DNA from: Mesorhizobium sp.
GTDB lineage: Bacteria > Pseudomonadota > Alphaproteobacteria > Rhizobiales > Rhizobiaceae
NCBI RefSeq assembly: GCF_016793485.1
Contig: NZ_JAEULZ010000006.1
Location: forward strand, 1 to 64,000
Reading direction: 5' to 3'
DNA length: 64,000 nt
Positions 7,868 through 44,399 of this stretch are shown here, piece by piece. The notes under the pieces are model-generated. The model ran no database searches and had not been told where the DNA came from. It was given only the letters and a program-made list of their open reading frames with translations. The position numbers were made by a program, and so were the translations under genes. Numbering within the stretch: position 1 is the first letter of the stretch; each line of letters starts with the position of its first letter.

Positions 7868-8881
7868 ATGAAGCCAAGCCGCCCCCTCGCCACTCTGTTC
7901 CACCCGTTCGAGAGCGGCGCGATTGCTACGCCGGCTCAGGGGCGCTTCCTGTTCCTAGGCGCCGAACCCGGATTTCGGCTGTCCGAGGGTTTCGCGGCCG
8001 ACCTGCATCTCGTCCAGGGGTTTCGGCCGCATTTTCGTGCGCTGGAAGCGGCAGGGAACAGGATATCGGCGCTGCCGGAAGGGTCGGGCTATGACGGCGC
8101 GCTCGTACTTGCCGGCCGGCACCGCGGCCAGAACGAGGACTGGATCGCCGAGGCGGTCGAGCGCGTCCTGCCGGGCGGGCTGATCCTCTTGGCCGGCAGC
8201 AACGAAGACGGCATCGGATCGCTGCGCAAGCGCGTCAACAAGCTGGTGGGAACCGACGACTCGCTGCCGAAGCATCATGGCGTTGCTTTCTGGTTCCGAC
8301 GACCCGACGACGCGTCCTTTGTCTCTGCGTTGCGGCCGCAGCCTGTCCTCGTCGAGGACCGCTTCGCAACAGCGCCCGGCATGTTCTCGCACGACAGGGT
8401 TGATCTAGGCTCGACGCTGCTGGCGGAGTGCCTGCCCGAGACGGGCAAGGGCTCAGCTGCGGACTTCGGCGCCGGCTGGGGTTATCTGGCAGGGATGCTG
8501 GCTGAGAGAACGACGGGGTTGGCCTCGATCGATCTCTACGAAGCCGACTATGCATCGCTGGAAGCCGCCAAGAGCAACCTTGCGGAACTCCCGAAGCCGC
8601 CGGCTTTCAATTTCTTCTGGCATGATCTGGTCGGCGAGGCGGTCGAGCGGAAATACGATCTCGTCGTCATGAACCCTCCCTTCCACCAGGGCCGGGCCGC
8701 CGAACCGGGCATCGGGCAGGCGATGATCGGCAAGGCTGCGTCCGCGCTGAAACCCGGCGGACGACTGCTGATGGTCGCCAATCGCGGCCTGCCCTACGCT
8801 CAGACGCTGCAGGCGGCGTTCAAGAAGGTCGAGGAATTGCGCGACGAGGACGGTTTTCGCGTGTTTTCGGCGATCCGCTGA
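7868..8881 (+). CDS. RsmC/RlmG-type class I SAM methyltransferase
   Basis: The 337-residue protein has the two-domain layout of RsmC, which methylates a 16S rRNA guanine. There is a degenerate N-terminal methyltransferase-like half and an active C-terminal half. The latter contains a glycine-rich SAM loop (ADFGAGWGYLAG, about residue 205) and the catalytic NPPFHQG motif (about residue 267) used by N-methyltransferases acting on exocyclic amines. The ATG at 7868 is preferred. Codons upstream in the same frame overlap the 5' end of the divergent nitronate monooxygenase gene and show no family similarity. rRNA is the likely substrate, but the exact position is inferred only from family. Confidence 0.82.
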   Translation: MKPSRPLATLFHPFESGAIATPAQGRFLFLGAEPGFRLSEGFAADLHLVQGFRPHFRALEAAGNRISALPEGSGYDGALVLAGRHRGQNEDWIAEAVERVLPGGLILLAGSNEDGIGSLRKRVNKLVGTDDSLPKHHGVAFWFRRPDDASFVSALRPQPVLVEDRFATAPGMFSHDRVDLGSTLLAECLPETGKGSAADFGAGWGYLAGMLAERTTGLASIDLYEADYASLEAAKSNLAELPKPPAFNFFWHDLVGEAVERKYDLVVMNPPFHQGRAAEPGIGQAMIGKAASALKPGGRLLMVANRGLPYAQTLQAAFKKVEELRDEDGFRVFSAIR

Positions 8882-8949
8882 TCGCAGCCTGGCGGCCGAT
8901 GACAGGGGCGCGCCAGCCGGTTATGAAGCCGTACGCTGCGGAGACGAGC

Positions 8950-9783
8950 ATGTACCACCGACGCATTCTGGACTGGGACGACGCCTACACCAACGGCGCC
9001 TACATAGCCGGTGGCGACCGCTGGCCCGAAACATTCTGGGCAGCGCCTGCCAAGGCGTGGCGGGACGAGCGTGCAGCGGCAGGCAAGGCGAAACTCGGCC
9101 TCGAATACGGACCGGGCGAGCGCAACCGCTTCGACCTTTTCCTCCCCGACGGCGAGTCGAAAGGCCTCGTGATCTTCATCCATGGCGGGTACTGGATGAA
9201 GTTCGACCAGAGCTACTGGTCGCATCTGGCGCGCGGGCCGGTCGAAAGCGGCTATACGGTGGCCATGCCGACCTACACGCTTTGCCCGCAGAACCGGATC
9301 GCCGGCATCACCAAGGAAATCGGGCACGCGGTCGAGAAGATCGCCGGCATGGTCGATGGGCCAATCCGCATAACCGGCCACTCGGCCGGCGGACATCTGG
9401 CGACGCGCATGGTCTGCACGGACTCGCCGCTGTCTGAAAGCGTGCGCGGACGGATTAGCAAAGTCGTGTCCCTGTCCGGCCTTCACGACCTGCGACCACT
9501 AATGCGCGCGGCAATGAACGACACGCTGCATATCGACGAGGCCGAGGCGAAGGCGGAAAGCCCACTCTTCCTGGAGCCGATCTCTGGCATTCCGGTGACT
9601 TTCTGGGTGGGCGGCACGGAACGCTCCGAATTCATCCGCCAGAGCAAGCTGCTCGCCAATGCATGGATCGGCGTCGGCGGTGCGACCGCCTATGTCGAGC
9701 AGCCCGACCGGCATCATTTCAACATCATCGACGGGCTCGCCGATGCGGCCCACCCCTTGACGCGCGCGCTGCTGGCGGATTGA
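8950..9783 (+). CDS. Alpha/beta hydrolase, kynurenine formamidase-like
   Basis: A 277-residue alpha/beta-hydrolase fold esterase/amidase. The oxyanion motif HGGYW and the nucleophile elbow GHSAGGH are both present, the combination found in arylformamidase (kynurenine formamidase)-type enzymes. The late His sits in PDRHHFNII near the C-terminus. The ATG at 8950 has a GGAG Shine-Dalgarno at 8940-8943 with 6-base spacing and is preferred over in-frame ATGs at 8899 and 8923. No tryptophan-catabolism genes are nearby, so the substrate remains open. Confidence 0.78.
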   Translation: MYHRRILDWDDAYTNGAYIAGGDRWPETFWAAPAKAWRDERAAAGKAKLGLEYGPGERNRFDLFLPDGESKGLVIFIHGGYWMKFDQSYWSHLARGPVESGYTVAMPTYTLCPQNRIAGITKEIGHAVEKIAGMVDGPIRITGHSAGGHLATRMVCTDSPLSESVRGRISKVVSLSGLHDLRPLMRAAMNDTLHIDEAEAKAESPLFLEPISGIPVTFWVGGTERSEFIRQSKLLANAWIGVGGATAYVEQPDRHHFNIIDGLADAAHPLTRALLAD

Positions 9784-9863
9784 TAGCAGGTCGCAGACGG
9801 GCTATCGAACGGCCCTGACCGAAAGTGAGGCGCAAGTTTGCGCCCGGTAATGGAAAGACCGCG

Positions 9864-10100
9864 ATGAGAGCCGTTTTCGTGCAGCTCCAGTGCCAGCCCG
9901 GAAAGACCTATGAGGTCGCCGACGCGCTGTTCGAGCGCGAGATCGTCTCGGAACTCTATTCGACCAGTGGCGAATACGATCTGCTGATGAAGATCTACAT
10001 CGAGGCCGAGGACGATATCGGCAAGTTCATCAACGAGCACATCGCCAATGTGCCGGGCATTGTCCGCTCGCTGACGACGCTGACCTTCAGGGCGTTTTAG
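9864..10100 (+). CDS. Stand-alone Lrp/AsnC ligand-binding (RAM) domain protein
   Basis: The 78-residue product consists only of the C-terminal regulatory (RAM) domain of Lrp/AsnC proteins: MRAVFVQLQCQPGK, then YSTSGEYDLLMKIYIEAEDD and IPGIVRS-like VPGIVRSLTTLTF. No helix-turn-helix is present. Such small proteins form the Lrp-type alpha-beta sandwich and may bind amino acids or associate with full-length Lrp proteins. The start at 9864 has GGAAAG upstream and fits the domain boundary; an ATG/other start at 9825 would add 13 unrelated residues. The last 14 bases overlap the convergent SH3 gene. Confidence 0.85.
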   Translation: MRAVFVQLQCQPGKTYEVADALFEREIVSELYSTSGEYDLLMKIYIEAEDDIGKFINEHIANVPGIVRSLTTLTFRAF

Positions 10101-10725
10101 CCGGGACGTCCGCGACAGGCAGTTTCGGCCTGCGCTTGAGGAAGCTGGAGGCCTCGACATAGTCGCCGCGCACCCAGCCTTTGCGCCCATCGCCCATCAC
10201 AAGCAGCCAGTCGCCGTCGCGGACCAGTTCACGCATCACGGTACCCGGCTCCAGCGTCGCGATCACAGCCGCGTCCGGGCGAGCCTGCGCGCGCAGGCGC
10301 ACCCGCGCCTTCGTCTGGATGGAGACCGGCTTGTCCGGCCGACTGATCGAGCCGGTGACGATCTTCTGTGGCCGCGACGGAGGCCGGTCCACGGTCTTGG
10401 GCAACACCAGCGCGATGGTATCGCTGGTGGCGGATTGCGGATTCTTGGCAAGCAATGTCCTGTTTGTTGCCGTCTTGCCGGTTAGCGACTTTGGCGGCAC
10501 GGGCTTTTCAGGGGTCGCTGTGGCCGTTGTCTTGGTCGATCCGGCGGATTTCACGCCGACGGGTTGCGTCGGGCGGGGCTTCGCGGCGGCCCGATCGGCC
10601 TGCACCTTTTCCGGCGGGCGCGGGTTCTTCATGTCCTCACGCACGACCCAGATGCCGACGGCAACCGCGCCGATGACAAGCCATCTGAGTTTGGGAAGCG
10701 CCAGTCCAGCCATGGCGCGCAGCAT
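10087..10725 (-). CDS. Membrane-anchored bacterial SH3-domain protein
   Basis: A 212-residue protein with one N-terminal membrane helix (residues about 13-28, LRWLVIGAVAVGIWVV). A long Pro/Lys/Thr-rich, low-complexity linker (about 30-130) follows. The C-terminal SH3-like domain (about 135-190) has the typical VRLRAQARPDAAVIATLEPGT start and GWVRGDYVE end. Such proteins usually sit in the periplasm and bind the cell wall or other envelope proteins. The specific role is unknown. Its 3' end overlaps the Lrp-domain gene tail-to-tail. Confidence 0.72.
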   Translation of the reverse strand: MLRAMAGLALPKLRWLVIGAVAVGIWVVREDMKNPRPPEKVQADRAAAKPRPTQPVGVKSAGSTKTTATATPEKPVPPKSLTGKTATNRTLLAKNPQSATSDTIALVLPKTVDRPPSRPQKIVTGSISRPDKPVSIQTKARVRLRAQARPDAAVIATLEPGTVMRELVRDGDWLLVMGDGRKGWVRGDYVEASSFLKRRPKLPVADVPAKTP

Positions 10726-10783
10726 GGCAGCAAGACTTTAAGACCGGGTTGATGCGCGGTTCTAGCTGCGCCGTGCTCTGGGA

Positions 10784-12031
10784 TCAGGCCGGCGCCGCCT
10801 GCTTCGACTGCCAGTCGGCCAAGGCTGCCTTGAGGGCGTCGCTCCCGGCCGCGGCGACTGTCGCATCGGGTGTGAAGCCGAGGCCCATCATCTTGCGGCC
10901 GAGCATGTGATCGGCAGGTCGATTGACCGATTCGATGCCCAAAAGCCGGTCGCCCTTGTAGTGGAACACGGAGAATTTGTTCTCGGCGGGGTCTCCGGAC
11001 AAGATTTGCCGGTCGCTGCCGCCGGTCAGCCCGACCATCTGCAGCTTCATGTCGCCGATATCCGACCAGAACCACGGAACCGCCGAATAGCTCTCGTCAT
11101 GGCCGGTGATGGTGCGCGCGGCCAACCGGGCCTGATCGGTGGCGTTCTGCACGGATTCCAGCCTGACATCCCCGCCCGTCATCCAGTGGCGATAGCTCGC
11201 GGCGTCGCCGATGGCGAGAACGTCGGGAGCCGAGGTCTGCATGCGCTGGTCGACGCGGATGCCGTTGGCGGTAGCAATGCCGGCTTCGGCGGCCAGTTCT
11301 ACATTCGGAACGACGCCAATGCCGACGATGATCATGCGGGCCGAAATCCGCTCACCGGCCGAGGTGATGACGGCGGCTACGTGGCCATTCTCGCCATCGA
11401 TTCGCCCAACGGTCGTACCGGTCAGCAGCCGGACCCCTGCAGCAGTGAGCCGCGAAGCCACATGGCTGGATATGGCAGCAGGAAGAACGCGGGCGAGCAG
11501 CCTGTCCTGCGCTTCGACAACGGTGACCTTGCGGCCGGAGGCGGCGAGCGTCGCCGCGATCTCCAGCCCGATGAAGCCGCCGCCCAGGACAACGACATCT
11601 TCGACCGAGTAAGCCAGCTCGCGAATCGCACGCGCGTCGGCGATGGACCGCAACGACAGCATGCCCTTGAGCGGGCCACCCTCCACCGGCAGGATGCGCG
11701 GCCGGGAACCGGTTGCGAGGATGGCCTTGTCGAAGGCGAGCGTGGCGCCGGAGGCCAGGGTCAGCCGTTTCTCGGCCGGGTCGAGGCTTTTGACGCTTTC
11801 GCCGAGCAGGAGGTCTATGTTTGCGCCCGAGAAGAAGGCATCTGCCCGCAGGATCTGCGGCTTGGCTTCCTTGTCCTTGATGAACGCCTTGGAGAGGGGA
11901 GGCTTGTGGTAGGGAAGTTCCTGTTCGTCCCCGATCAGCCTGACAGGCCCCTGATGGCCCTCCTCGCGCAGGCTGGCCGCCGCCTGGACGCCACCGTGAC
12001 CTGCTCCGATGATGACAACGCCGTCTTCCAT
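10784..12031 (-). CDS. FAD/NAD(P)-dependent ferredoxin reductase (rhodocoxin/putidaredoxin reductase type)
   Basis: The 415-residue flavoprotein starts with the FAD dinucleotide-binding motif VVIIGAGHGGVQAA and has a second NAD-binding motif VVVLGGGFIGLEIAATL near residue 150. It has the LPYHKPPLSK segment and the VLAIGDAA FAD motif, then a C-terminal reductase domain. This is the layout of the CamA/ThcD family, which passes electrons from NAD(P)H to small iron-sulfur proteins. It is divergent from the imelysin-bfd-bfr operon across a 403-bp region with an Irr box. Bfd encoded there is a [2Fe-2S] protein and therefore a possible partner; that link is inferred from position. Confidence 0.85.
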   Translation of the reverse strand: MEDGVVIIGAGHGGVQAAASLREEGHQGPVRLIGDEQELPYHKPPLSKAFIKDKEAKPQILRADAFFSGANIDLLLGESVKSLDPAEKRLTLASGATLAFDKAILATGSRPRILPVEGGPLKGMLSLRSIADARAIRELAYSVEDVVVLGGGFIGLEIAATLAASGRKVTVVEAQDRLLARVLPAAISSHVASRLTAAGVRLLTGTTVGRIDGENGHVAAVITSAGERISARMIIVGIGVVPNVELAAEAGIATANGIRVDQRMQTSAPDVLAIGDAASYRHWMTGGDVRLESVQNATDQARLAARTITGHDESYSAVPWFWSDIGDMKLQMVGLTGGSDRQILSGDPAENKFSVFHYKGDRLLGIESVNRPADHMLGRKMMGLGFTPDATVAAAGSDALKAALADWQSKQAAPA

Positions 12032-12159
12032 GCCGCTTCCATCCTGATGTTCCGTCGCTCATGCCGCTTGCCCATTCGCGGCGTGACGAAGGCGTTCGCG
12101 TCGCATCCGGGGGGCATTCATGTCAATCCGGGCCAACCTCATGAAAACATGACACTTGT

Positions 12160-12180
12160 AGTTTAGAATAATTCTAAACT
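12160..12180. promoter_or_regulatory. Irr box (iron control element)
   Basis: Two perfectly complementary 10-base arms, AGTTTAGAAT and ATTCTAAACT, flank a single central A. This matches the rhizobial Irr-box/ICE pattern TTTAGAA-N3-TTCTAAA. Irr is the haem-sensing Fur-family regulator of Hyphomicrobiales. The box is 128 bp upstream of the reductase start and 254 bp upstream of the imelysin start, so it could control both directions. A weak sigma-70-like promoter for the imelysin operon (TTGACT at 12213, 18-base spacer, TATCAG) lies just downstream. The rest of the 12032-12434 interval shows no other clear element. Confidence 0.85.
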
Positions 12181-12434
12181 ATTGATTGGATTAAGCTTTT
12201 CAGCGATTTCCATTGACTTCGGGGAACCGGCGGGCCTATCAGTCGGGACGTCCTGCAGGGGCGATACCTTTGATGTCCGGGCCTTGAACCCGGTCGATTG
12301 GAGGAACTTTGATGGTTTCCGGCCCGGCCCGCCATGCAAGCGGAGTGCCGTGGATGACGCCGGAAAGTCACGGCTCCCCATTCGCAAAACAAGATTTTCG
12401 GAGCGCTCGCATGCGCTTGGCCAAGGAGAGAAAG

Positions 12435-13724
<1,290 letters not shown>

Positions 13725-13742
13725 TACCTATCTATCAAGCCA

Positions 13743-13764
13743 GGCGGCGCACGGTCGCGCCGCC
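13743..13764 (+). other. Stem-loop between imelysin and bfd
   Basis: GGCGGCGC (13743-13750) pairs perfectly with GCGCCGCC (13757-13764) around a 6-base loop. There is no following T-run, so it is more likely an mRNA-stability or processing element than a terminator. It separates the periplasmic imelysin from the cytoplasmic Bfd-Bfr genes. Confidence 0.5.
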
Positions 13765-13782
13765 AGCCAGCAAGAGTTCGAG

Positions 13783-14094
13783 ATGCTTGTCTGTCACTGC
13801 AACCTGATTACCGAGAAGGAGATCGAGGAAACGATCATCGGCCTGCTGGAGCAGGATCCCTGGCAGCTTATCGTGCCTGCGAAGGTATATCACACCCTTC
13901 GCAAGAGGGGTCGCTGTTGCGGCTGCTTCCCAAATGTGGTGGAAACGATCATTCGGGTCACCGAACACTACCACACCCGCTCGGAGGCGAGCGACGTGGA
14001 CATCGTTTCACACCTAGACCGCGTGCGTGGACTGCGGTCTGAATACGGGAGCAGAGGCCATGAAGGGCGAAAAGCAGGTAATCGAGCGGCTTAA
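13783..14094 (+). CDS. bfd: Bacterioferritin-associated ferredoxin (Bfd-like)
   Basis: Bfd is a small [2Fe-2S] protein that reduces bacterioferritin so that stored iron can be released. The 103-residue product has the four cluster ligands in the expected pattern, C4-x-C6 (CHC) and C45-x-x-C48 (within RCCGCFP). It is longer than typical Bfd because of a charged C-terminal tail ([19 protein letters not shown]). The last 35 bases overlap the bfr start in another frame, which suggests translational coupling and fixed stoichiometry. The partner, Bfr, is the next gene. Confidence 0.9.
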
Positions 14095-14557
14095 CGAGGC
14101 GCTTTTCCTCGAACTCGGCGCGGTCAACCAGTACTGGGTACACTACCGTCTGCTGGAGGACTGGGGCTACACCAAGCTGGCGAAGAAGGAGCGGGCGGAA
14201 TCGATCGAGGAAATGCAGCATGCCGACAAGCTCGTGGCGCGCATCATCTTCCTCGAAGGCCATCCGAATCTCCAGTCGGTCGCGCCGTTGCGCATCGGGC
14301 AGAACGTGAAGGAAGTGCTGGAAGCCGATCTCGCGGGCGAGTACGACGCCCGCACCGCCTACAAGAAGTCGCGCGAAATCTGCCATGACGCCGGCGACTA
14401 CGTGACCATGAAGCTGTTCGAACAACTGCTGGCCGACGAGGAAGGCCATATCGATTTCCTCGAGACGCAACTCGACCTGCTCAACTCGCTGGGCGATGCC
14501 AAGTATGGCCAGCTCAACGCGGATTCGGCCAACGAGGCCGAGGGCGGAGAGCACTAG
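14060..14557 (+). CDS. bfr: Bacterioferritin
   Basis: Bacterioferritin forms 24-subunit haem-containing iron-storage cages. The 165-residue protein has all ferroxidase ligands at the positions known in E. coli Bfr: E18, Y25, E51, H54, E94, E127 and H130. The haem-binding Met is M52. The ATG at 14060 has AGAGG just upstream and gives the family start [13 protein letters not shown] longer frame from 14027 would add 11 unrelated residues. The position inside an Irr-box operon agrees with iron control of storage. Confidence 0.96.
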
Positions 14558-14569
14558 GACCATGACCCC

Positions 14570-16135
14570 ATGCGGTGCGCCATAGCGAGATTTCTGAGCG
14601 CGCCGCACGCTTTCCGGACCATGACCGCGGCTTTCGCGGCGGCCATGGCTGTTTTTTTCCTGATGCCTGCCCTGGCGGGCGACGCGAGCATCGAGAAAGA
14701 ACGCAGCGACCTGACGCCGGAAGACGCCGCACGCGTCAAGGCGATCACGGCGCCCGCCTCGGACTTTTCGAAACCTGAAAAGTTCGAGATGATGCAGGGC
14801 GGAGCGGGCACGTCGAAGAAGCGGGTGAACCGCGACGCCTTCTCGCAATCCTCGGCCAATATAACCTTCGAGGAAGAAGGCACGTTCAAGCTCGGCAACG
14901 CGCTGTTCCGCAAGCTCTGGGTGTCGTCGCCGTCATCGACGCAGGCCTCCGATGGGCTCGGCCCGCTCTTCAACGCGCGCGCTTGCCAGAGCTGTCACCT
15001 GAAGGACGGTCGCGGCCGTCCCCCAGAGGACAATCCCGACGCGACCTCCATGTTCCTCAGACTGGCGCGCCAGGCCGAGACCGAGGAAGAGAAAAAGCTT
15101 GTCGCGGAACATGCCGTCCTGAATTTTCCCGACCCGGTTTATGGCTCGCAACTTCAGGATCTCGCGGTACCCGGTCTTGCCGGCGAAGGCCGCATGAAGA
15201 TCGCTTACGAGGAAATGCCGGTGACGCTCGGTGACGGGACGACCGTCTCCCTGCGCAAGCCGACCTACTCGATCGAAAACCTTGGCTATGGGCCACTCAA
15301 CCCCGGGACGACGCTGTCGCCACGGGTAACGCCGCAGATGATCGGTCTTGGGTTGGTCGAGCAGATTCATCCGGCCGATATTCTCGCCAATGCCGATCCC
15401 GACGATGCGGATGGCGACGGCATCACCGGCAAGGCATCCATCGTGCGCGACCCGAAGAGCGGCGAACTAACACTGGGCCGGTTTGGCTGGAAGGCGCAGA
15501 CGCCTTCGATCCGCGAGCAGACGGCAGACGCCTTCGCGGGCGATATCGGCATCTCAACGCCAGACGTGCCAAAATCATGGGGTGATTGCACGCAAGCCCA
15601 GACCGCCTGCCTGGAAAGACCAACCGGCGTGCAGGGACGGCTGGGCGACACGGAAGCGCCGGACCCGGTGCTCGACCTCGTCACCTTCTATTCGCAGCAT
15701 CTTGCTGTGCCGGCGCGCCGTGACGTCGGCAAGCCGGACGTCCTGCGCGGCAAACAGATATTCTACCAAGCCGGCTGCGCATCCTGCCATACGCCGAAAT
15801 TCGTCACGCGTCGCGATGCGCCGAACAAGGCACAGGCTTTCCAGCTCATATGGCCCTATTCCGATTTTCTCCTGCACGACATGGGGGAAGGACTGGCGGA
15901 TGGCCAGCAGGTTGGCGAGGCGACCGGCCGCGAATGGCGGACGCCGCCGCTCTGGGGCATCGGCCTGACCGAAAAGGTCAGCGGGCACACATTCTTCCTG
16001 CACGACGGTCGTGCCCGCAATCTGACGGAAGCCATCCTCTGGCACGGTGGAGAGGCGCAGGCTGCGCGCGACCGCTTTGCAAACCTATCCGCAACGGACC
16101 GTGAAGCCCTGGTGAAATTTCTGGAGTCGCTGTGA
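14570..16135 (+). CDS. Periplasmic diheme c-type cytochrome, thiol-oxidoreductase-like (DUF1111/COG3488)
   Basis: A 521-residue exported protein with an N-terminal signal sequence (hydrophobic stretch AFAAAMAVFFLMPALA, about residues 20-37). Two CxxCH haem c sites are present, CQSCH at about 138-142 and CASCH at about 402-406. Their spacing matches the DUF1111 family, often labelled thiol oxidoreductase and distantly related to diheme peroxidases. A calcium-loop-like DPDDADGDGI segment is near residue 283. It starts 12 bases after bfr, and its stop overlaps the next imelysin (ATGA). A role in periplasmic iron redox chemistry is inferred from the cluster; no reaction is proven for this family. 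Confidence 0.85.
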   Translation: MRCAIARFLSAPHAFRTMTAAFAAAMAVFFLMPALAGDASIEKERSDLTPEDAARVKAITAPASDFSKPEKFEMMQGGAGTSKKRVNRDAFSQSSANITFEEEGTFKLGNALFRKLWVSSPSSTQASDGLGPLFNARACQSCHLKDGRGRPPEDNPDATSMFLRLARQAETEEEKKLVAEHAVLNFPDPVYGSQLQDLAVPGLAGEGRMKIAYEEMPVTLGDGTTVSLRKPTYSIENLGYGPLNPGTTLSPRVTPQMIGLGLVEQIHPADILANADPDDADGDGITGKASIVRDPKSGELTLGRFGWKAQTPSIREQTADAFAGDIGISTPDVPKSWGDCTQAQTACLERPTGVQGRLGDTEAPDPVLDLVTFYSQHLAVPARRDVGKPDVLRGKQIFYQAGCASCHTPKFVTRRDAPNKAQAFQLIWPYSDFLLHDMGEGLADGQQVGEATGREWRTPPLWGIGLTEKVSGHTFFLHDGRARNLTEAILWHGGEAQAARDRFANLSATDREALVKFLESL

Positions 16136-17208
16136 TGTTGTCTCGCATTCTCGCCTGCCTCGCAACTTTCAACCTTGCTATCGTCGCGCTACCTGCCCAG
16201 GCCAGCAAGGCAACAGACATCGTCAATGGCGCTATCGGAGGTTTCGTTCGCCCCGGCTATCATGCCTTTCTGGGGGCGACGACCGGACTTTCGGAAGCCG
16301 GCAAAAAACTTTGCGCCGAGCCCTCGACGGCAAATCTCGACGCGATGCGTGGAGCTTTTGGGAAGACGGTCGGTACGTGGTCGCGCGTCGAAGTCATCCG
16401 ATTCGGGCCCGTGACCGAGCAGAACAGGCTCGAGCGCGTGCTCTACTGGCCCGACCGCAAGAGCACTGGCCTGAAGCAAGTCCAGGCGGCGATCGCCGAA
16501 AAGGACATGACTGCGACCGACGCCGCGCAGTTGGCCGGCAAGAGCGTCGCCATGCAAGGTCTGGGCGCGCTGGAATTCGTGCTGTTTGGCACGGGCTCGG
16601 ATCAGCTTGCGAATGGCGATGCCTACCGCTGTAGCTATGGCGCTGCGATTGCAGGCAATCTCCAGGCGATTGCCGGGGAGATCGACGCTGCGTGGGCCGA
16701 CCCTGACGGCTTTGCGAAGACATGGTCGACGCCCTCGGCCGAGAATCCGCTCTTTCGGGATGGCAAGGAGGCAGTGACTGAACTGATGGACGTCTTCGTG
16801 ACCGGAACGGAACTGGTACGCGATGTCCGCCTTGGTGGATTTCTTGGCGCGGGGGCGAAGGACGACAGGCCGAAACAGGCGCTGTTCTGGCGGTCGGAGC
16901 AGACGGTCCCGGCGCTGGGCGGAAACATGGCCGGTATGCGTGATCTGCTGGAGGCGTCCAAGCTGGCGGCCGCGTTGCCTGCGGATCAGGCCTTCCTCGG
17001 CGGAAGTACGATTTTCGAATTTTCCAATGCCGCGAATGCCTTGTCGAGCCTCCAGGGGCCTGTTGCCGACATTCTCGCCGATCCCGAAAAGCGGGCGAAG
17101 CTCGCCTATTTCGGCCTCGTAACGTCGAGCCTCTCCGACATCTTCGGAACGCAGATGTCGGGAGCTCTCGGCCTGACCTCCGGTTTCTCTTCGCTCGATG
17201 GGGACTAG
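16135..17208 (+). CDS. Second imelysin-family periplasmic protein (COG3489-like)
   Basis: A 357-residue exported protein with signal peptide (LACLATFNLAIVALPAQA, cleavage near residue 22). It has an imelysin core, with the conserved AMQGLGALEFVLFG region near residue 140 in place of the GxHxxE segment seen in the first imelysin. It therefore belongs to the second subgroup that travels with DUF1111 proteins. The ATG at 16135 overlaps the upstream TGA; a GTG at 16132 is an alternative. The absence of the full HxxE motif suggests a different metal-binding or structural role from the first copy. Confidence 0.83.
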   Translation: MLSRILACLATFNLAIVALPAQASKATDIVNGAIGGFVRPGYHAFLGATTGLSEAGKKLCAEPSTANLDAMRGAFGKTVGTWSRVEVIRFGPVTEQNRLERVLYWPDRKSTGLKQVQAAIAEKDMTATDAAQLAGKSVAMQGLGALEFVLFGTGSDQLANGDAYRCSYGAAIAGNLQAIAGEIDAAWADPDGFAKTWSTPSAENPLFRDGKEAVTELMDVFVTGTELVRDVRLGGFLGAGAKDDRPKQALFWRSEQTVPALGGNMAGMRDLLEASKLAAALPADQAFLGGSTIFEFSNAANALSSLQGPVADILADPEKRAKLAYFGLVTSSLSDIFGTQMSGALGLTSGFSSLDGD

Positions 17209-17211
17209 CCC

Positions 17212-18318
17212 ATGCCGGCCAAGTGCACCAACCTGATCGACCGCCGCGATTTTCTTCGGGCAGCCGGGGTAACATTTTTGTCCGCACTCGCGCCGCAAGC
17301 CTTCGCCGATACGCTCGCGGCAGACGCGGTGTTTGCCACGGCCTACCAGCGACGTGATGGAAGCTATGGAGCGGCGATTATTTCCGAAGCCGGAAAAGTC
17401 CTGCATGCGGTGGACCTGCCGGATCGCGGCCATGACATTACCTTCGATCCCATTTCCGGGCGCTCGGTCGTCTTCGCGCGCCAGCCGGGTACTTTCTTCG
17501 TGGCCTTCAGGCACAAGGGCGACACGCCGCCGGTCACGGTGGAAAGCATCGCGGGCCGCCACTTCTTCGGCCATGGCATTTTTTCGCCCGATGGGCGGTT
17601 GCTCTACACGACCGAAAACGATTTCGATAACGCCGCTGGCATGGTCGGCGTCTACGATGCGACCAACGGCTTTTCGAGGGTCGGAGAATTCCCGACGCAT
17701 GGCGTCGGGCCGCACGAGCTTCTTCTGCTTGGGGACGGACGCACCATCGCAATCGCCAATGGCGGCATCGAGACGCATCCCGATTTCGGCCGCGCCAAGC
17801 TCAACCTGCCCACCATGAAGCCGTCCTTCGTGCTGGTGGACAGGTTCACAGGCGACCTGATCGAGAAGCACGAACTGCCGCCTGAACTGCACCAGCTCTC
17901 CATCCGCCACATGGACACCGATGAAAAAGGAGCGGTCTGGTTCGGCTGCCAGCACGAGGGGCCGGCAACCGAACGCCCTGCCCTTGTCGGTCGTGCCGTG
18001 CGCGGCAAGGAGATGCAACTGATCGACATGGAGCCAAAAGTGCTTTCCGGCTTCCGCAACTATATCGGGTCTGTGGCGGCGAACCGGGATGCCGGCACAG
18101 TCGCGGTGACCTCGCCGCAGGGCAATGCCTACGCCGTGATCGAGGCAGCGAGCGGAAAGGTCATTGCTGTGGAAAGCCTGACGGAAGTGTGCGGCGCAGC
18201 ACCTGATCGCGCTGGCTTCATCGTCTCGACCGGGACGGGCGTTGTCGTCGAACCCGACGGCAGGTCTTCGAGGGACGAGACCTACGTCTGGGACAATCAC
18301 ATGCTCCGGATAGGATGA
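17212..18318 (+). CDS. Tat-exported DUF1513 protein, predicted beta-propeller (COG3490)
   Basis: The 368-residue protein begins with a twin-arginine signal (RRDFLRAAG followed by a hydrophobic stretch and AFA). It is predicted to be exported folded, which often means that a cofactor is inserted in the cytoplasm. The rest consists of repeated beta-rich blades with motifs such as GHDITFDPISGRSVVFARQPG and SPDGRLLYTTENDFD, typical of beta-propellers. It is the last gene of the iron operon, 3 bases after the second imelysin. Function is unknown; its constant company with imelysins and DUF1111 points to iron handling. Confidence 0.82.
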   Translation: MPAKCTNLIDRRDFLRAAGVTFLSALAPQAFADTLAADAVFATAYQRRDGSYGAAIISEAGKVLHAVDLPDRGHDITFDPISGRSVVFARQPGTFFVAFRHKGDTPPVTVESIAGRHFFGHGIFSPDGRLLYTTENDFDNAAGMVGVYDATNGFSRVGEFPTHGVGPHELLLLGDGRTIAIANGGIETHPDFGRAKLNLPTMKPSFVLVDRFTGDLIEKHELPPELHQLSIRHMDTDEKGAVWFGCQHEGPATERPALVGRAVRGKEMQLIDMEPKVLSGFRNYIGSVAANRDAGTVAVTSPQGNAYAVIEAASGKVIAVESLTEVCGAAPDRAGFIVSTGTGVVVEPDGRSSRDETYVWDNHMLRIG

Positions 18319-18327
18319 GCAGGCGAC

Positions 18328-18345
18328 GCGTGGATAAATCCACGC
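18328..18345. terminator. Weak hairpin between convergent genes
   Basis: GCGTGGA (18328-18334) pairs with TCCACGC (18339-18345) around TAAA. It sits between the ends of the DUF1513 gene and phnN. There is no clear T-run on either side, so termination activity is uncertain. Confidence 0.4.
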
Positions 18346-18356
18346 CGCGATGATCG

Positions 18357-18980
18357 TCAGACCGTTCCGGAGATGTCGGCGAAGGCCATCGCCTTGCGGA
18401 TGATGGCCACGAGCTTGTCTCCGGCGATCTCGGGCGCACCGCCATTGTCGAGGACGATGGACGGGCCGGTCGTGTCGCAGGAGATGGTGCGGGCAAGCCG
18501 AGCCAGAATCTCGTCGCGCGTCTCTCGGCCCCGGCCAGCGAGCCGTGAGGCGAGGATCTCCGGATCGGCGGTTATCTCCACCACGGCTACATTCGCGTAA
18601 CGCTCGCGCAGCGCCGGCAACGCACCGCGCGAAAGATTGGCGACCGCGACATGGCCATTGTCGAGCGCGGTATCGACACTTGAAGGAATGCCGTAGCGCA
18701 GGCCGTGCGCTTCCCATGCCAGCGCGAACGCGCCGTCGCTCTGCGCCTGCACGAAGGCTTCGTCGCTCAGCGTGTCGTGCTGCTCAGTCGAGCCGTCACA
18801 GGGCCGTGTGATGACACGCCTGACGAAATCGACCTGCGGCTCACCGCCAAGCGCCGCCATGGCATGCGCGATCAACGTGTCCTTGCCGGCGCCGCTTGGG
18901 CCGACGATGGCGACGAACGCGCCGTTACGGATCGGCAGCGCGCCGGCCTGGACGCGCTCCAGCAGGGCTGATGTCATCAT
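18357..18980 (-). CDS. phnN: Ribose 1,5-bisphosphate phosphokinase PhnN
   Basis: PhnN makes PRPP from ribose 1,5-bisphosphate and ATP, the last step in recycling the ribose product of C-P lyase. The 207-residue protein is guanylate-kinase-like: P-loop GPSGAGKDTLI near residue 28, VRRVITRP segment, and a lid with RGRETRDEILARLAR. It overlaps phnM by 4 bases (ATGA), so the two are co-translated. C-P lyase core genes (phnGHIJKL) are not in the window. Confidence 0.9.
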   Translation of the reverse strand: MMTSALLERVQAGALPIRNGAFVAIVGPSGAGKDTLIAHAMAALGGEPQVDFVRRVITRPCDGSTEQHDTLSDEAFVQAQSDGAFALAWEAHGLRYGIPSSVDTALDNGHVAVANLSRGALPALRERYANVAVVEITADPEILASRLAGRGRETRDEILARLARTISCDTTGPSIVLDNGGAPEIAGDKLVAIIRKAMAFADISGTV

Positions 18981-20116
18981 GCGACGCGACGTCCCTCGCG
19001 CCAGACGGTGCGAACGACCGGAATATGCTCCTCCAGTCGGACACGCACGAGGTCGGCGCGCCGGCCCGGCTCAATGACGCCGCGATCGGTCAGGCCGACG
19101 GCGTCGGCAGGATTCTTCGACACCATCGCTACCGCCTGCGGCAGCGAGATGCCGTCGACAGCGTCGCCGATGAAGAAAGCCGACTGGATCAGGCTGAACG
19201 GGATGTAGTCGGACGACAGGATATCGAGCAGGCCGTCGGCCGCGAGGTCGCGGGCCGAGACGTTGCCGGAGTGCGAACCGCCGCGCATGACGTTCGGCGC
19301 GCCCATCAGCACGCCGAGGCCGGCCTGCTTGGAAGCGGCCGCCGCTTCCGTCGTGGTCGGGAATTCGGCGACGCGGATACCCTGCTCGATCGCCTCGTCG
19401 ACATGCGCGACCGTTGCGTCGTCATGGCTGGCCAGCACGATGCCGCGCTCATGGCAGGCCTTGGCAACGGCCAGCCGGTTGGATGCGGAGTTCTGCTGTG
19501 ACTGGGCGACACGCGCATCGCAATAGATGCGGAACTGTTCCTCCGACATCTTCATCTTGCCCATGTAGTAGGTGGCGTAGGCCTCCAGGCTGGCGAACTG
19601 GCGCTGGCCGGGCGCATGGTCCATGAGCGAGGCGAGTTTGACGCGATAGTCGCCCGAGAACAGCGCGAAAGCTTCAAGGCAGTCCGGCGCGGAGACTTCG
19701 CAGCGCAGGTGGATGAAGTGATCGGCGCGCACCAAATCTTCGCTGACGCTGGTCTCGATGGCGTCGGCCAGCTTGCGCATATCCTGCATTGTCAGGTCGG
19801 CTTCGTAGTCCATGCCGACGCGCAGCGCGTCGAACACGGTTGTGATGCCTGCGGTGGCGATCTGCGCGTCATGCGCCAATACGGAGGCGATCGGGTTCCA
19901 GCGCACTTTTGGGCGCGGCGCATAATGGCCCTCGAGATGGTCGGTATGCAGCTCGACCAGCCCCGGGATGACGTAGTCGCCCTCCATGTTCTCGCCCGTG
20001 CGGACATTGCCGCGGTCGATGTCGGCAATCTTGCCGTCGCGAATGACGACGCTGCCCGGCACGACCTCGTCGGCGAGCACGATGTTGGCGTTGGTCAGGA
20101 CGGTCTCGGTCATCAT
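18977..20116 (-). CDS. phnM: Alpha-D-ribose 1-methylphosphonate 5-triphosphate diphosphatase PhnM
   Basis: PhnM removes pyrophosphate from the ribose-triphosphate phosphonate intermediate before C-P bond cleavage. The 379-residue amidohydrolase has the metal motif HTDHLEGH near residue 59, the ASHDDATVAHV segment and the GAPNVMRGGSHSGN active-site loop. The start at 20116 (ATGATG) overlaps the DUF1045 stop codon (ATGA). An upstream extension in the same frame lies wholly within the DUF1045 gene and is rejected. Order DUF1045-phnM-phnN forms a tight phosphonate operon. Confidence 0.93.
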   Translation of the reverse strand: MMTETVLTNANIVLADEVVPGSVVIRDGKIADIDRGNVRTGENMEGDYVIPGLVELHTDHLEGHYAPRPKVRWNPIASVLAHDAQIATAGITTVFDALRVGMDYEADLTMQDMRKLADAIETSVSEDLVRADHFIHLRCEVSAPDCLEAFALFSGDYRVKLASLMDHAPGQRQFASLEAYATYYMGKMKMSEEQFRIYCDARVAQSQQNSASNRLAVAKACHERGIVLASHDDATVAHVDEAIEQGIRVAEFPTTTEAAAASKQAGLGVLMGAPNVMRGGSHSGNVSARDLAADGLLDILSSDYIPFSLIQSAFFIGDAVDGISLPQAVAMVSKNPADAVGLTDRGVIEPGRRADLVRVRLEEHIPVVRTVWREGRRVA

Positions 20117-43967: not shown

Positions 43968-44399
43968 TCAGCCGGCGCGGCGCTTGCGGCCGTAGAGTTC
44001 GAGCCGGTGGTGCACGATGTCATAACCCAACGCTTTTGCGATCTCGTCCTGGAGCTGTTCGATCCGCTCCGACTTGAACTCGATCACGTCGCCGGTCTCG
44101 ATGTCGATCAGGTGGTCGTGATGCTCGCCGCCGGCGTGCTCGAACCGCGAAGGCCCGCCCTCGAAGGCGTGGCGGTGGATCGCTCCCATGTCCCCGAGCA
44201 GCTTCATCGTGCGGTAGACCGTGGAGAGCGAGATCGACGGGTCTTCCGCGGACGCGCGCCGGAAGATTTCAAGCGCGTCCGGATGATCTTCGGTCTCCGA
44301 CAGGATGGCAAGAATGACGCTGCGCTGGCGCGTGATCCGCACGCCCTGCCGGCGCAGTTCCTTCTCGTAATCGAGCCTTTTCGGGGTTCGTCTTACCAT
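43968..44399 (-). CDS. Fur-family regulator (Fur/Mur type)
   Basis: A 143-residue metalloregulator with a winged helix ([14 protein letters not shown] through [16 protein letters not shown]) and the metal-binding segment [19 protein letters not shown]. The sequence is closest to the Fur/Mur branch, which in rhizobia responds to manganese more than iron. It lacks the paired Cys motifs of classical Fur/Zur zinc sites and is not Irr. It is divergent from the adenylate cyclase gene; the metal specificity cannot be decided here. Confidence 0.87.

What the first reader, a model, noticed from the sequence alone, without database searches (positions are those of the whole stretch)
10784..18318. Irr-box-controlled iron locus joining periplasmic imelysin/diheme proteins with bacterioferritin and its ferredoxin
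A perfect Irr box lies between a FAD ferredoxin reductase and a six-gene operon: imelysin, Bfd, Bfr, DUF1111 diheme cytochrome, second imelysin, Tat-exported DUF1513. The imelysin/DUF1111/imelysin/DUF1513 set (COG3487-3490) recurs in proteobacteria but has no proven mechanism and no inner-membrane permease. Here it is interrupted by Bfd-Bfr. This suggests one system that handles iron redox state in the periplasm and storage in the cytoplasm.
Basis: partly seen in the sequence, partly recalled or inferred. Interest (0 to 1): 0.72.

Follow-up and report, generated by a model that had tools for sequence, protein, structure and literature searches.

The report
Shared RNA hairpin on iron genes

Summary
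The six genes, the divergent reductase and a perfect Irr box are at the stated places. The box is the only perfect one in this 5.2-Mb genome, and the operon holds its only bfr. Core gene order recurs in 79 of 80 related loci; bfr sits inside it in 51.

The main finding lies just downstream of the box. A 40-nt leader element (12265-12304) folds as a hairpin with a near-invariant CCUU(G/U)A(A/C) loop; the Shine-Dalgarno sequence lies in its lower stem. Its stem covaries (score reached by 0 of 500 shuffles). No Rfam match overlaps it in the two stretches scanned. A covariance model finds it in 67 of 297 genomes of the order; a broader model gave no convincing hit outside it.

I fetched 60 of 88 matches. 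First recognised genes: fbpA 22, a cysteine-rich unknown (DUFx) 17, bfd-bfr 7, imelysin 6, sufA 3, feoAB 2, DUF2325 2, FTR1 1. Irr-like boxes lie close upstream of 40.

So the imelysin and bfd-bfr modules belong to one regulon, joined in this lineage. Best mechanism: Irr sets transcription and the hairpin gates translation through an unknown iron-linked factor. Neither the sign of Irr control nor that factor is shown.

The parts
10784..12031 (-). FAD/NAD(P) ferredoxin-reductase-like protein, divergent from the operon; candidate electron donor to Bfd
   Evidence: Pfam Pyr_redox_2, Reductase_C. Divergent neighbour in 39 of 80 loci; also divergent from a bfd-bfr operon without imelysin in L133/L144, one place fetched twice
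12162..12178 (.). Perfect Irr box TTTAGAATAATTCTAAA
   Evidence: Only perfect match in the genome; conserved upstream of orthologues
12213..12241 (+). Likely promoter TTGACT-N17-CTATCA
   Evidence: Read. TTGAC found 33-36 nt after the box in 47 of 47 loci with a box, against 3.3 expected. Not listed by the scan
12265..12304 (+). Conserved leader RNA hairpin; loop CCUUGAA at 12282-12288; Shine-Dalgarno GGAGG at 12300-12304 in the lower stem
   Evidence: Covariation, consensus fold computed without my input, CM searches, minimum-energy fold of the 40 nt -16.1 kcal/mol
12312..12434 (+). Open stretch from the ATG that follows the hairpin's SD, in frame with imelysin A: leader ORF or N-terminal extension
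   Evidence: the stretches encoded at this place differ between loci
12435..13724 (+). Imelysin A (ICMP-like, GxHxxE motif GYHAIE)
   Evidence: PF09375; best PDB match 7xrx, insulin-cleaving metalloproteinase outer membrane protein, E 7e-119
13783..14094 (+). Bfd-like [2Fe-2S] protein, diverged CCGC variant
   Evidence: Fer2_BFD 17.1 bits, below cut-off; CxC and CxxC present in 54 of 54 sequences, window included
14060..14557 (+). Bacterioferritin, the only one in the genome
   Evidence: TIGR00754; PDB 9gzu
14570..16135 (+). DUF1111/DHOR di-haem protein with CQSCH and CASCH
   Evidence: PF06537 330 bits; the C, C and H of both motifs invariant in 21 sequences, window included; no PDB sequence relative
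16132..17208 (+). Imelysin B (variant GxxxxE motif GLGALE)
   Evidence: PF09375; PDB 3pf0, E 7e-8
17212..18318 (+). DUF1513, twin-arginine signal
   Evidence: PF07433 369 bits

Best explanation
The operon belongs to an iron regulon of its order (Hyphomicrobiales, from the named relatives) that is controlled at two levels. (1) Irr binds the box at 12162-12178 and sets transcription from the promoter about 35 nt downstream (box and promoter conservation shown; binding and sign inferred). (2) The transcript then carries a 40-nt hairpin at 12265-12304 whose lower stem contains the Shine-Dalgarno sequence and whose loop is near-invariant (covariation shown; fold predicted). The hairpin gates translation of what follows: a leader ORF or the imelysin here, and fbpA, bfd, sufA or sufB directly in other leaders (inferred). 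The loop is read by a trans-acting factor tied to iron or Fe-S status (inferred, factor unknown). The proteins made are a periplasmic iron-handling set (imelysins, di-haem DUF1111, DUF1513) and a reductase-Bfd-Bfr route that withdraws iron from the store (functions inferred from families). Because uptake genes (fbpA, feoAB, FTR1) carry the same leader, the likeliest sense is induction when iron is short.
For: Stem covariation in 72 distinct cores from 147 element sequences, some of them one place fetched twice: 5-bp stem 90.6% of cells paired, 51 cells with both sides changed against 15.4 +/- 4.3 shuffled, covariation 0.367 against 0.137 +/- 0.017, 0 of 500 shuffles as high for these three; slid versions are much lower; one pair shows all six standard pair types. 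RNAalifold finds the lower stem and the GGG/CCC stem unprompted. Specificity: pattern in 31 of 151 family genomes (37 matches), reversed pattern 0; CM R1 in 67 of 297 order genomes; broader R2 in 3 of 337 class genomes, of which one is the own genome, one a sufA-like gene of the same order and one unconvincing; in 1.4 Mb of imelysin loci and window all 48 R2 hits lie in such leaders. Gene association: 60 of 60 fetched of 88 rows; 41 are known iron or Fe-S genes, 19 the unknowns DUFx or DUF2325. Labels checked on representatives: fbpA by PDB (1q35 FbpA E 8e-105 for L188; iron-binding relatives for L215), sufA and sufB over NCBIfam cut-offs, FeoA, FeoB and FTR1 over Pfam cut-offs. Irr-like box with up to 3 mismatches within 200 nt upstream in 40 of 60 against 8 of 1227 control stretches. 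First start codon 6-7 nt after the SD in 37 of the 52 leaders with a recognised SD, against 4.2 expected from shuffles. No Rfam match overlaps the element in window 8000-20000 or L098 6500-10500 (E up to 5).
Against: Single-sequence folding is weak in many leaders: mean z -0.55 over 43. In a 216-nt context the predicted fold of this leader does not keep the hairpin. On the 45-leader set, two of five measures are not above shuffles (pairs with a double change 51/500, further pair types 189/500), the outermost pair is broken in 5 of 36 and one covarying pair is unpaired in 27 of 36. Shuffles do not keep relatedness. Among the 80 imelysin loci R2 finds the element in 44 of 51 with bfr inside but only 2 of 29 without, and in 7 with bfr it is not found (one of these, L009, is cut off upstream). 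The same element precedes storage (bfr) and uptake genes, so a simple on/off logic is unclear. NCBIfam names no iron transporter for the six fbpA-type proteins tested (hits to other transporters, all below cut-off). No expression, binding or probing data exist here.
Confidence: 0.65

Rival explanations
1. The inverted repeat is a DNA operator for a second iron regulator, not an RNA element.
For: Paired half-sites also occur in DNA operators; the element lies near promoters and Irr-like boxes in many leaders.
Against: G-U and U-G pairs make up 11 of 63 paired cells at the most variable pair; the loop is not palindromic; a start codon follows at a set distance; in the own genome a copy lies at sufB, 1.4 kb after the Irr-like box and after a cysteine desulfurase gene; the lower stem includes the SD.
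Confidence: 0.15
2. The hairpin loop is the pairing target of a conserved trans-acting small RNA, a functional counterpart of RyhB in this order. (This is one way in which the best explanation's unknown factor could be realised.)
For: One near-invariant loop is shared by unlinked iron mRNAs next to the SD.
Against: The full 12-nt complement GGTTCAAGGCCC has no exact copy in the own genome (reverse 0); no small-RNA search was made.
Confidence: 0.2
3. A plain Irr-regulated iron operon; the leader motif is only a conserved translation-initiation region spread with its promoter, without regulatory role.
For: Box and motif keep a nearly fixed spacing in many family leaders (about 100-119 nt in most of the 30 loci), as copied cassettes would; the element tracks bfr among the 80 imelysin loci.
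Against: The near-invariant loop with a covarying stem across the order, and occurrence at sufA/sufB where no close Irr-like box is found (6-8 mismatches at L105, L113, L122, L224, L228, L237).
Confidence: 0.2
4. DUFx is the dedicated partner that binds the hairpin.
For: DUFx lies next to many elements; 41 genomes have both against 22.8 expected, hypergeometric p 2e-7 before correction for relatedness.
Against: The own genome has the element but no DUFx at E 1e-6; 26 of 67 element genomes lack it.
Confidence: 0.05

Closest known systems
P. aeruginosa PA4370-PA4373 imelysin operon (Xu et al. 2011, PMC3143127, passages read)
   Same: Two imelysins around a DUF1111 protein; iron-regulated; no permease in the operon
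   Different: There Fur-regulated; here an Irr box, bfd-bfr inserted and the leader hairpin
EfeUOB/EfeM iron transport (PMC3143127, passages; PMC9174327, listing only)
   Same: M75 imelysin domain proteins in periplasmic iron handling
   Different: No EfeU-type permease in the locus. From recall, EfeB is a DyP peroxidase whereas DUF1111 is di-haem (PMC3143127 groups them)
Irr-repressed bfr and mbfA of Bradyrhizobium japonicum (PMC4902296, passages)
   Same: bfr controlled through an Irr (ICE) box
   Different: A repressor layout is described with the transcription start inside the box, for R. sphaeroides mbfA and said to agree with B. japonicum bfr (PMC3413700, passages); here the likely promoter begins about 35 nt after the box
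Eukaryotic IRE and bacterial metal riboswitches (recalled)
   Same: Short 5' leader hairpin on iron genes that may gate translation
   Different: Different loop and sequence, no known ligand or protein; no overlapping Rfam match

Membership tests
Bacterioferritin | Passes the curated bfr model | tested here: met
   TIGR00754 178.8 bits, cut-off 125.55
Bfd | Passes the Fer2_BFD cut-off | tested here: not met
   17.1 bits, cut-off 26
Bfd | Four cysteines CxC...CxxC, adjacent to bfr | tested here: met
   54 of 54 sequences, window included; bfr present in 52 of the 54
Imelysin family M75 | Profile match and GxHxxE motif | tested here: met
   Both proteins match PF09375; motif complete in A, variant GxxxxE in B
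EfeUOB | FTR1-type permease in the operon | tested here: not met
   The only FTR1 match in the genome lies on another contig
Irr regulon | Irr box upstream and an Irr protein in the genome | tested here: met
Irr regulon | Irr-dependent expression | not testable with these tools
   No expression data
Known cis-regulatory RNA (Rfam 15) | Match to a described family over the element | tested here: not met
   No match overlapping the element up to E 5 in window 8000-20000 or L098 6500-10500; the 5 matches listed lie elsewhere and far below their gathering scores
Structured cis-regulatory RNA | Covariation above shuffles and slid controls | tested here: met
   (score 1/500, 0/500, 0/500)
Structured cis-regulatory RNA | Folding energy below shuffled sequences | tested here: inconclusive
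   Mean z -0.55 over 43 leaders
Riboswitch | Direct ligand binding | not testable with these tools
   Needs in-line or SHAPE probing

The most novel reading that the evidence does not exclude
A bacterial counterpart of the IRE/IRP system: one loop-specific iron- or Fe-S-responsive RNA-binding factor (or Fe ligand) reads the same hairpin on mRNAs for iron uptake (fbpA, feoAB, FTR1, imelysins), storage (bfd-bfr) and Fe-S assembly (sufA, sufB) across the order, as a translational layer on top of Irr.
Probability: 0.4. Interest if true: 0.93.

Novelty: new variant of a known kind. Interest (0 to 1): 0.8.

Why it matters
From the papers seen here and from recall, iron control in these bacteria is described through transcription factors (Irr, RirA, Fur/Mur). 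A shared, covarying leader hairpin on uptake, storage and Fe-S genes would add a post-transcriptional iron regulon, give a search handle for unknown iron genes (DUFx, DUF2325, the imelysin set), and make the long-unclear imelysin/DUF1111 system testable through its regulation. It also offers a short, well-defined RNA bait for finding the sensing factor.

Tried and rejected
Rejected: DUFx as a required partner (no match in the own genome). A second hairpin around the leader start codon and a downstream attenuator: some leaders show U-tailed stems by eye, but folding scores do not support them over 43 leaders (mean z +0.27 and -0.61), and terminator-like sites in this region are at chance. A conserved leader peptide: the encoded stretches differ between loci. 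A known Rfam element: no overlapping match. Extension beyond the order: G504's two hits lack the SD and start-codon context and look antisense to coding sequence (by eye); that search used stricter filters that can lose weak matches. A promoter overlapping the Irr box (hexamers ATGAAA/TAGAAT) remains possible, so Irr repression is not excluded.

Not done: structure prediction of DUFx and DUF1111. The Rodionov 2006 paper is not held. No tree was built, so gain or loss of bfd-bfr is untested. Literature: ten searches listed nothing that describes this RNA; I saw only listings with title and abstract start, apart from passages of PMC3143127, PMC4902296 and PMC3413700. Preprints and most subscription papers were not searched.

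Rows dropped or picked: two of 80 loci from the box count (L009 cut off upstream, L043 without imelysin A). Three elements that did not fit the loop pattern (L193, L215, L235) from the 72 cores; in one of 60 order loci there was more than one loop candidate and the better-pairing one was taken. 28 of 88 CM rows were not fetched.
Full report
WHAT WAS CHECKED. The window lies on a 218-kb contig of a 5.2-Mb genome. The closest named loci come from Mesorhizobium, Aminobacter and relatives. Five of the six operon proteins match family models above cut-off. The Bfd-like protein is a diverged relative of Fer2_BFD (17.1 bits, cut-off 26) but CxC and CxxC cysteines are present in 54 of 54 sequences, window included. 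Imelysin A has GYHAIE (GxHxxE), imelysin B GLGALE (GxxxxE), DUF1111 two CXXCH motifs, DUF1513 a twin-arginine motif (sequence).

THE IRR BOX. It is the only perfect copy of TTTAGAA-N3-TTCTAAA in the genome. Two further sites have one mismatch: one about 30 bp upstream of a nifU-like gene, one before a cysteine-desulfurase-like gene that precedes sufB. Of 79 upstream regions read (window included), 36 have an exact box within 600 bp of imelysin A and 9 more have one mismatch; control stretches give 2 of 2144. An Irr is encoded. In all 47 loci with a box selected, TTGAC follows 33-36 nt later (3.3 expected), with a -10-like hexamer 17 nt on in the window (sequence). That puts the likely start about 78 nt after the box centre (inference). 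A repressor layout of Irr is described with the start inside the box (PMC3413700, passages). The layout here does not fit simple repression from this promoter, although promoter-like hexamers overlapping the box were also flagged. The sign of control is open.

OPERON AND NEIGHBOURS. In 79 of 80 loci the order imelysin A-DUF1111-imelysin B-DUF1513 is kept; bfr lies between the first two in 51. In L004 the bfd frame ends in a tail that resembles the end of bfr, as after an in-frame loss. The reductase is divergent next to the operon in 39 of 80 (38 with bfr, plus L004), and also next to a bfd-bfr operon without imelysin (L133/L144, one place). This supports a reductase-Bfd-Bfr route (inference). 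The genome has one bfr and a separate FtrA-cupredoxin-FTR1 set.

THE LEADER ELEMENT. Aligning 28 leaders showed a block more conserved than its surroundings: CCTTTGATGtctGGGCCTTgAACCC-N-TTCGATTGGAGG. The exact pattern occurs in 31 of 151 family genomes (37 matches; 0 for the reversed pattern). Of the 30 loci supplied with that search, 9 lead imelysin A, 6 DUFx then imelysin A, 1 DUFx then bfd-bfr, 6 DUFx alone within about 1.5 kb, 4 bfd-bfr, 2 sufB, 1 sufA, and 1 (L130) no recognised gene (my tally). In one genus with separate bfd-bfr and DUFx operons, both carry the element (G063: L131, L138; G149: L132, L139). Among the 80 imelysin loci, R2 finds the element in 44 of 51 with bfr inside and 2 of 29 without, so near the window it tracks bfr; farther away it also leads imelysin sets without bfr (for example L179, L180, L197).

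STRUCTURE. On 45 leaders (36 distinct) the proposed 14-bp hairpin has 90.3% of cells paired (0 of 500 shuffles), covariation score 1 of 500, cells with double changes 0 of 500; but pairs with a double change (51 of 500) and further pair types (189 of 500) are not above shuffles, and slid versions are lower in cells paired and covariation score. The consensus fold computed without my input gives the lower stem and GGG/CCC. The window's 40 nt fold into exactly this structure at -16.1 kcal/mol. With order-wide sequences, 72 distinct 21-nt cores from 147 element sequences aligned without gaps. The 5-bp stem scores 90.6% paired, 51 double changes against 15.4, covariation 0.367 against 0.137, 0 of 500 shuffles for each; further pair types 1 of 500. 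The 7-bp version keeps these three at 0 of 500 but is weaker in its outer pairs, with further pair types 33 of 500. Shuffles do not keep relatedness; the slid controls do. Against the fold: single-sequence z-scores are modest (mean -0.55, n 43), and a 216-nt fold of this leader rearranges.

DISTRIBUTION. CM R1 hits 67 of 297 order genomes, 34 of 123 genera, 88 rows. I fetched 60 of the 88 rows; the 28 left out are 8 rows of the own family and 20 others, 18 of these from genera already represented (my count). The first recognised gene downstream is fbpA in 22, DUFx in 17 (12 of these followed by imelysin A, 2 by bfd-bfr, 3 by nothing recognised), bfd-bfr in 7, imelysin A in 6, sufA in 3, feoAB in 2, DUF2325 in 2 and FTR1 (after a cupredoxin) in 1. 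Assignment is by tblastn with one query per family; the labels were checked on representatives: fbpA of L188 and L215 against the PDB (FbpA 1q35 E 8e-105 for L188; iron-binding relatives for L215), while NCBIfam gave only sub-threshold hits to other binding proteins for six of them; sufA of L224 and L142 and sufB over curated cut-offs. DUFx and DUF2325 are unknown families, so 41 of 60 are known iron or Fe-S genes outright. Some loci are from the same genus, and L194/L234 overlap. Irr-like boxes with up to 3 mismatches lie within 200 nt upstream in 40 of 60 against 8 of 1227 control stretches. The first start codon lies 6-7 nt after the SD in 37 of 52 leaders with a recognised SD, against 4.2 expected. 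At class level the broader model R2 hits 3 of 337 genomes under stricter filters: the own genome, a sufA-like gene in the same order, and G504, whose two hits look like antisense coding sequence. In 80 imelysin loci plus the window (1.4 Mb) R2 gives 48 hits in 46 loci and the window, all in such leaders, one of them before DUF2325. The own genome holds this copy (E 7e-16), the sufB copy (E 0.01) and a weak third match (E 0.16) that I did not follow.

MECHANISM. Shown: conserved box, conserved TTGAC, covarying stem with a near-invariant loop, SD within the proposed lower stem, start codon at a set distance, gene association. Inferred: translation is gated by opening of the hairpin, and a loop-binding factor senses iron or Fe-S status. 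Because many element-bearing genes serve acquisition, I favour induction under iron shortage; bfd (iron release from Bfr) fits this better than bfr itself. DUFx is a conserved ~168-aa family without a Pfam match for the two members tested, enriched with the element (41 genomes with both, 22.8 expected) but without a match in the own genome, so it is not a required partner.

VERDICT. The more unusual result is a structured leader RNA, without an overlapping Rfam match in the stretches scanned, that marks an iron regulon across the order.

Noticed in passing
L117:1649-2155 and 49 homologues in other loci: DUFx: about 168-aa family (ExLVxxGxRxWxAG ... CxxCP ... CRDECL), no Pfam match for two members tested, next to fbpA, imelysin or bfd-bfr operons; found in 101 of 297 order genomes.
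   Followed up: partly
L216:3176-4399, L234:3051-4313: DUF2325 proteins directly downstream of the leader hairpin, unlinked so far to iron.
   Followed up: partly
L004:7551-7844: bfd reading frame that ends in a tail resembling the end of bfr, as if bfr was lost by an in-frame deletion; metagenome assembly, may be an artefact.
   Followed up: no
L130 and L136: Leader hairpin with no iron gene recognised close by; the next large ORF, 0.5-0.8 kb downstream, looks like a sulfate-type binding protein (label from recall).
   Followed up: no
window 43968-44399 (-): Fur/Mur-like regulator gene in the same window, below the equivalog cut-offs.
   Followed up: no
G000:C9:195275 and L098:7455-10288: Irr box with one mismatch before a cysteine-desulfurase-like gene, and the short hairpin form at sufB further on: the suf region carries both signals.
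   Followed up: partly
window 12312-12434: The SD in the hairpin is followed by an ATG in frame with imelysin A, which also has its own good SD before 12435; the true start of imelysin A is uncertain.
   Followed up: partly
13783-14094: Bfd-like proteins of this clade form a diverged subfamily (CHC/CSC ... CCGC); the one tested falls below the Pfam BFD cut-off.
   Followed up: partly
L066, L073, L049, L050, L056, L046: Imelysin loci without bfr and without the leader hairpin still show a degenerate Irr-like box (2 mismatches) 88-163 nt before imelysin A.
   Followed up: no
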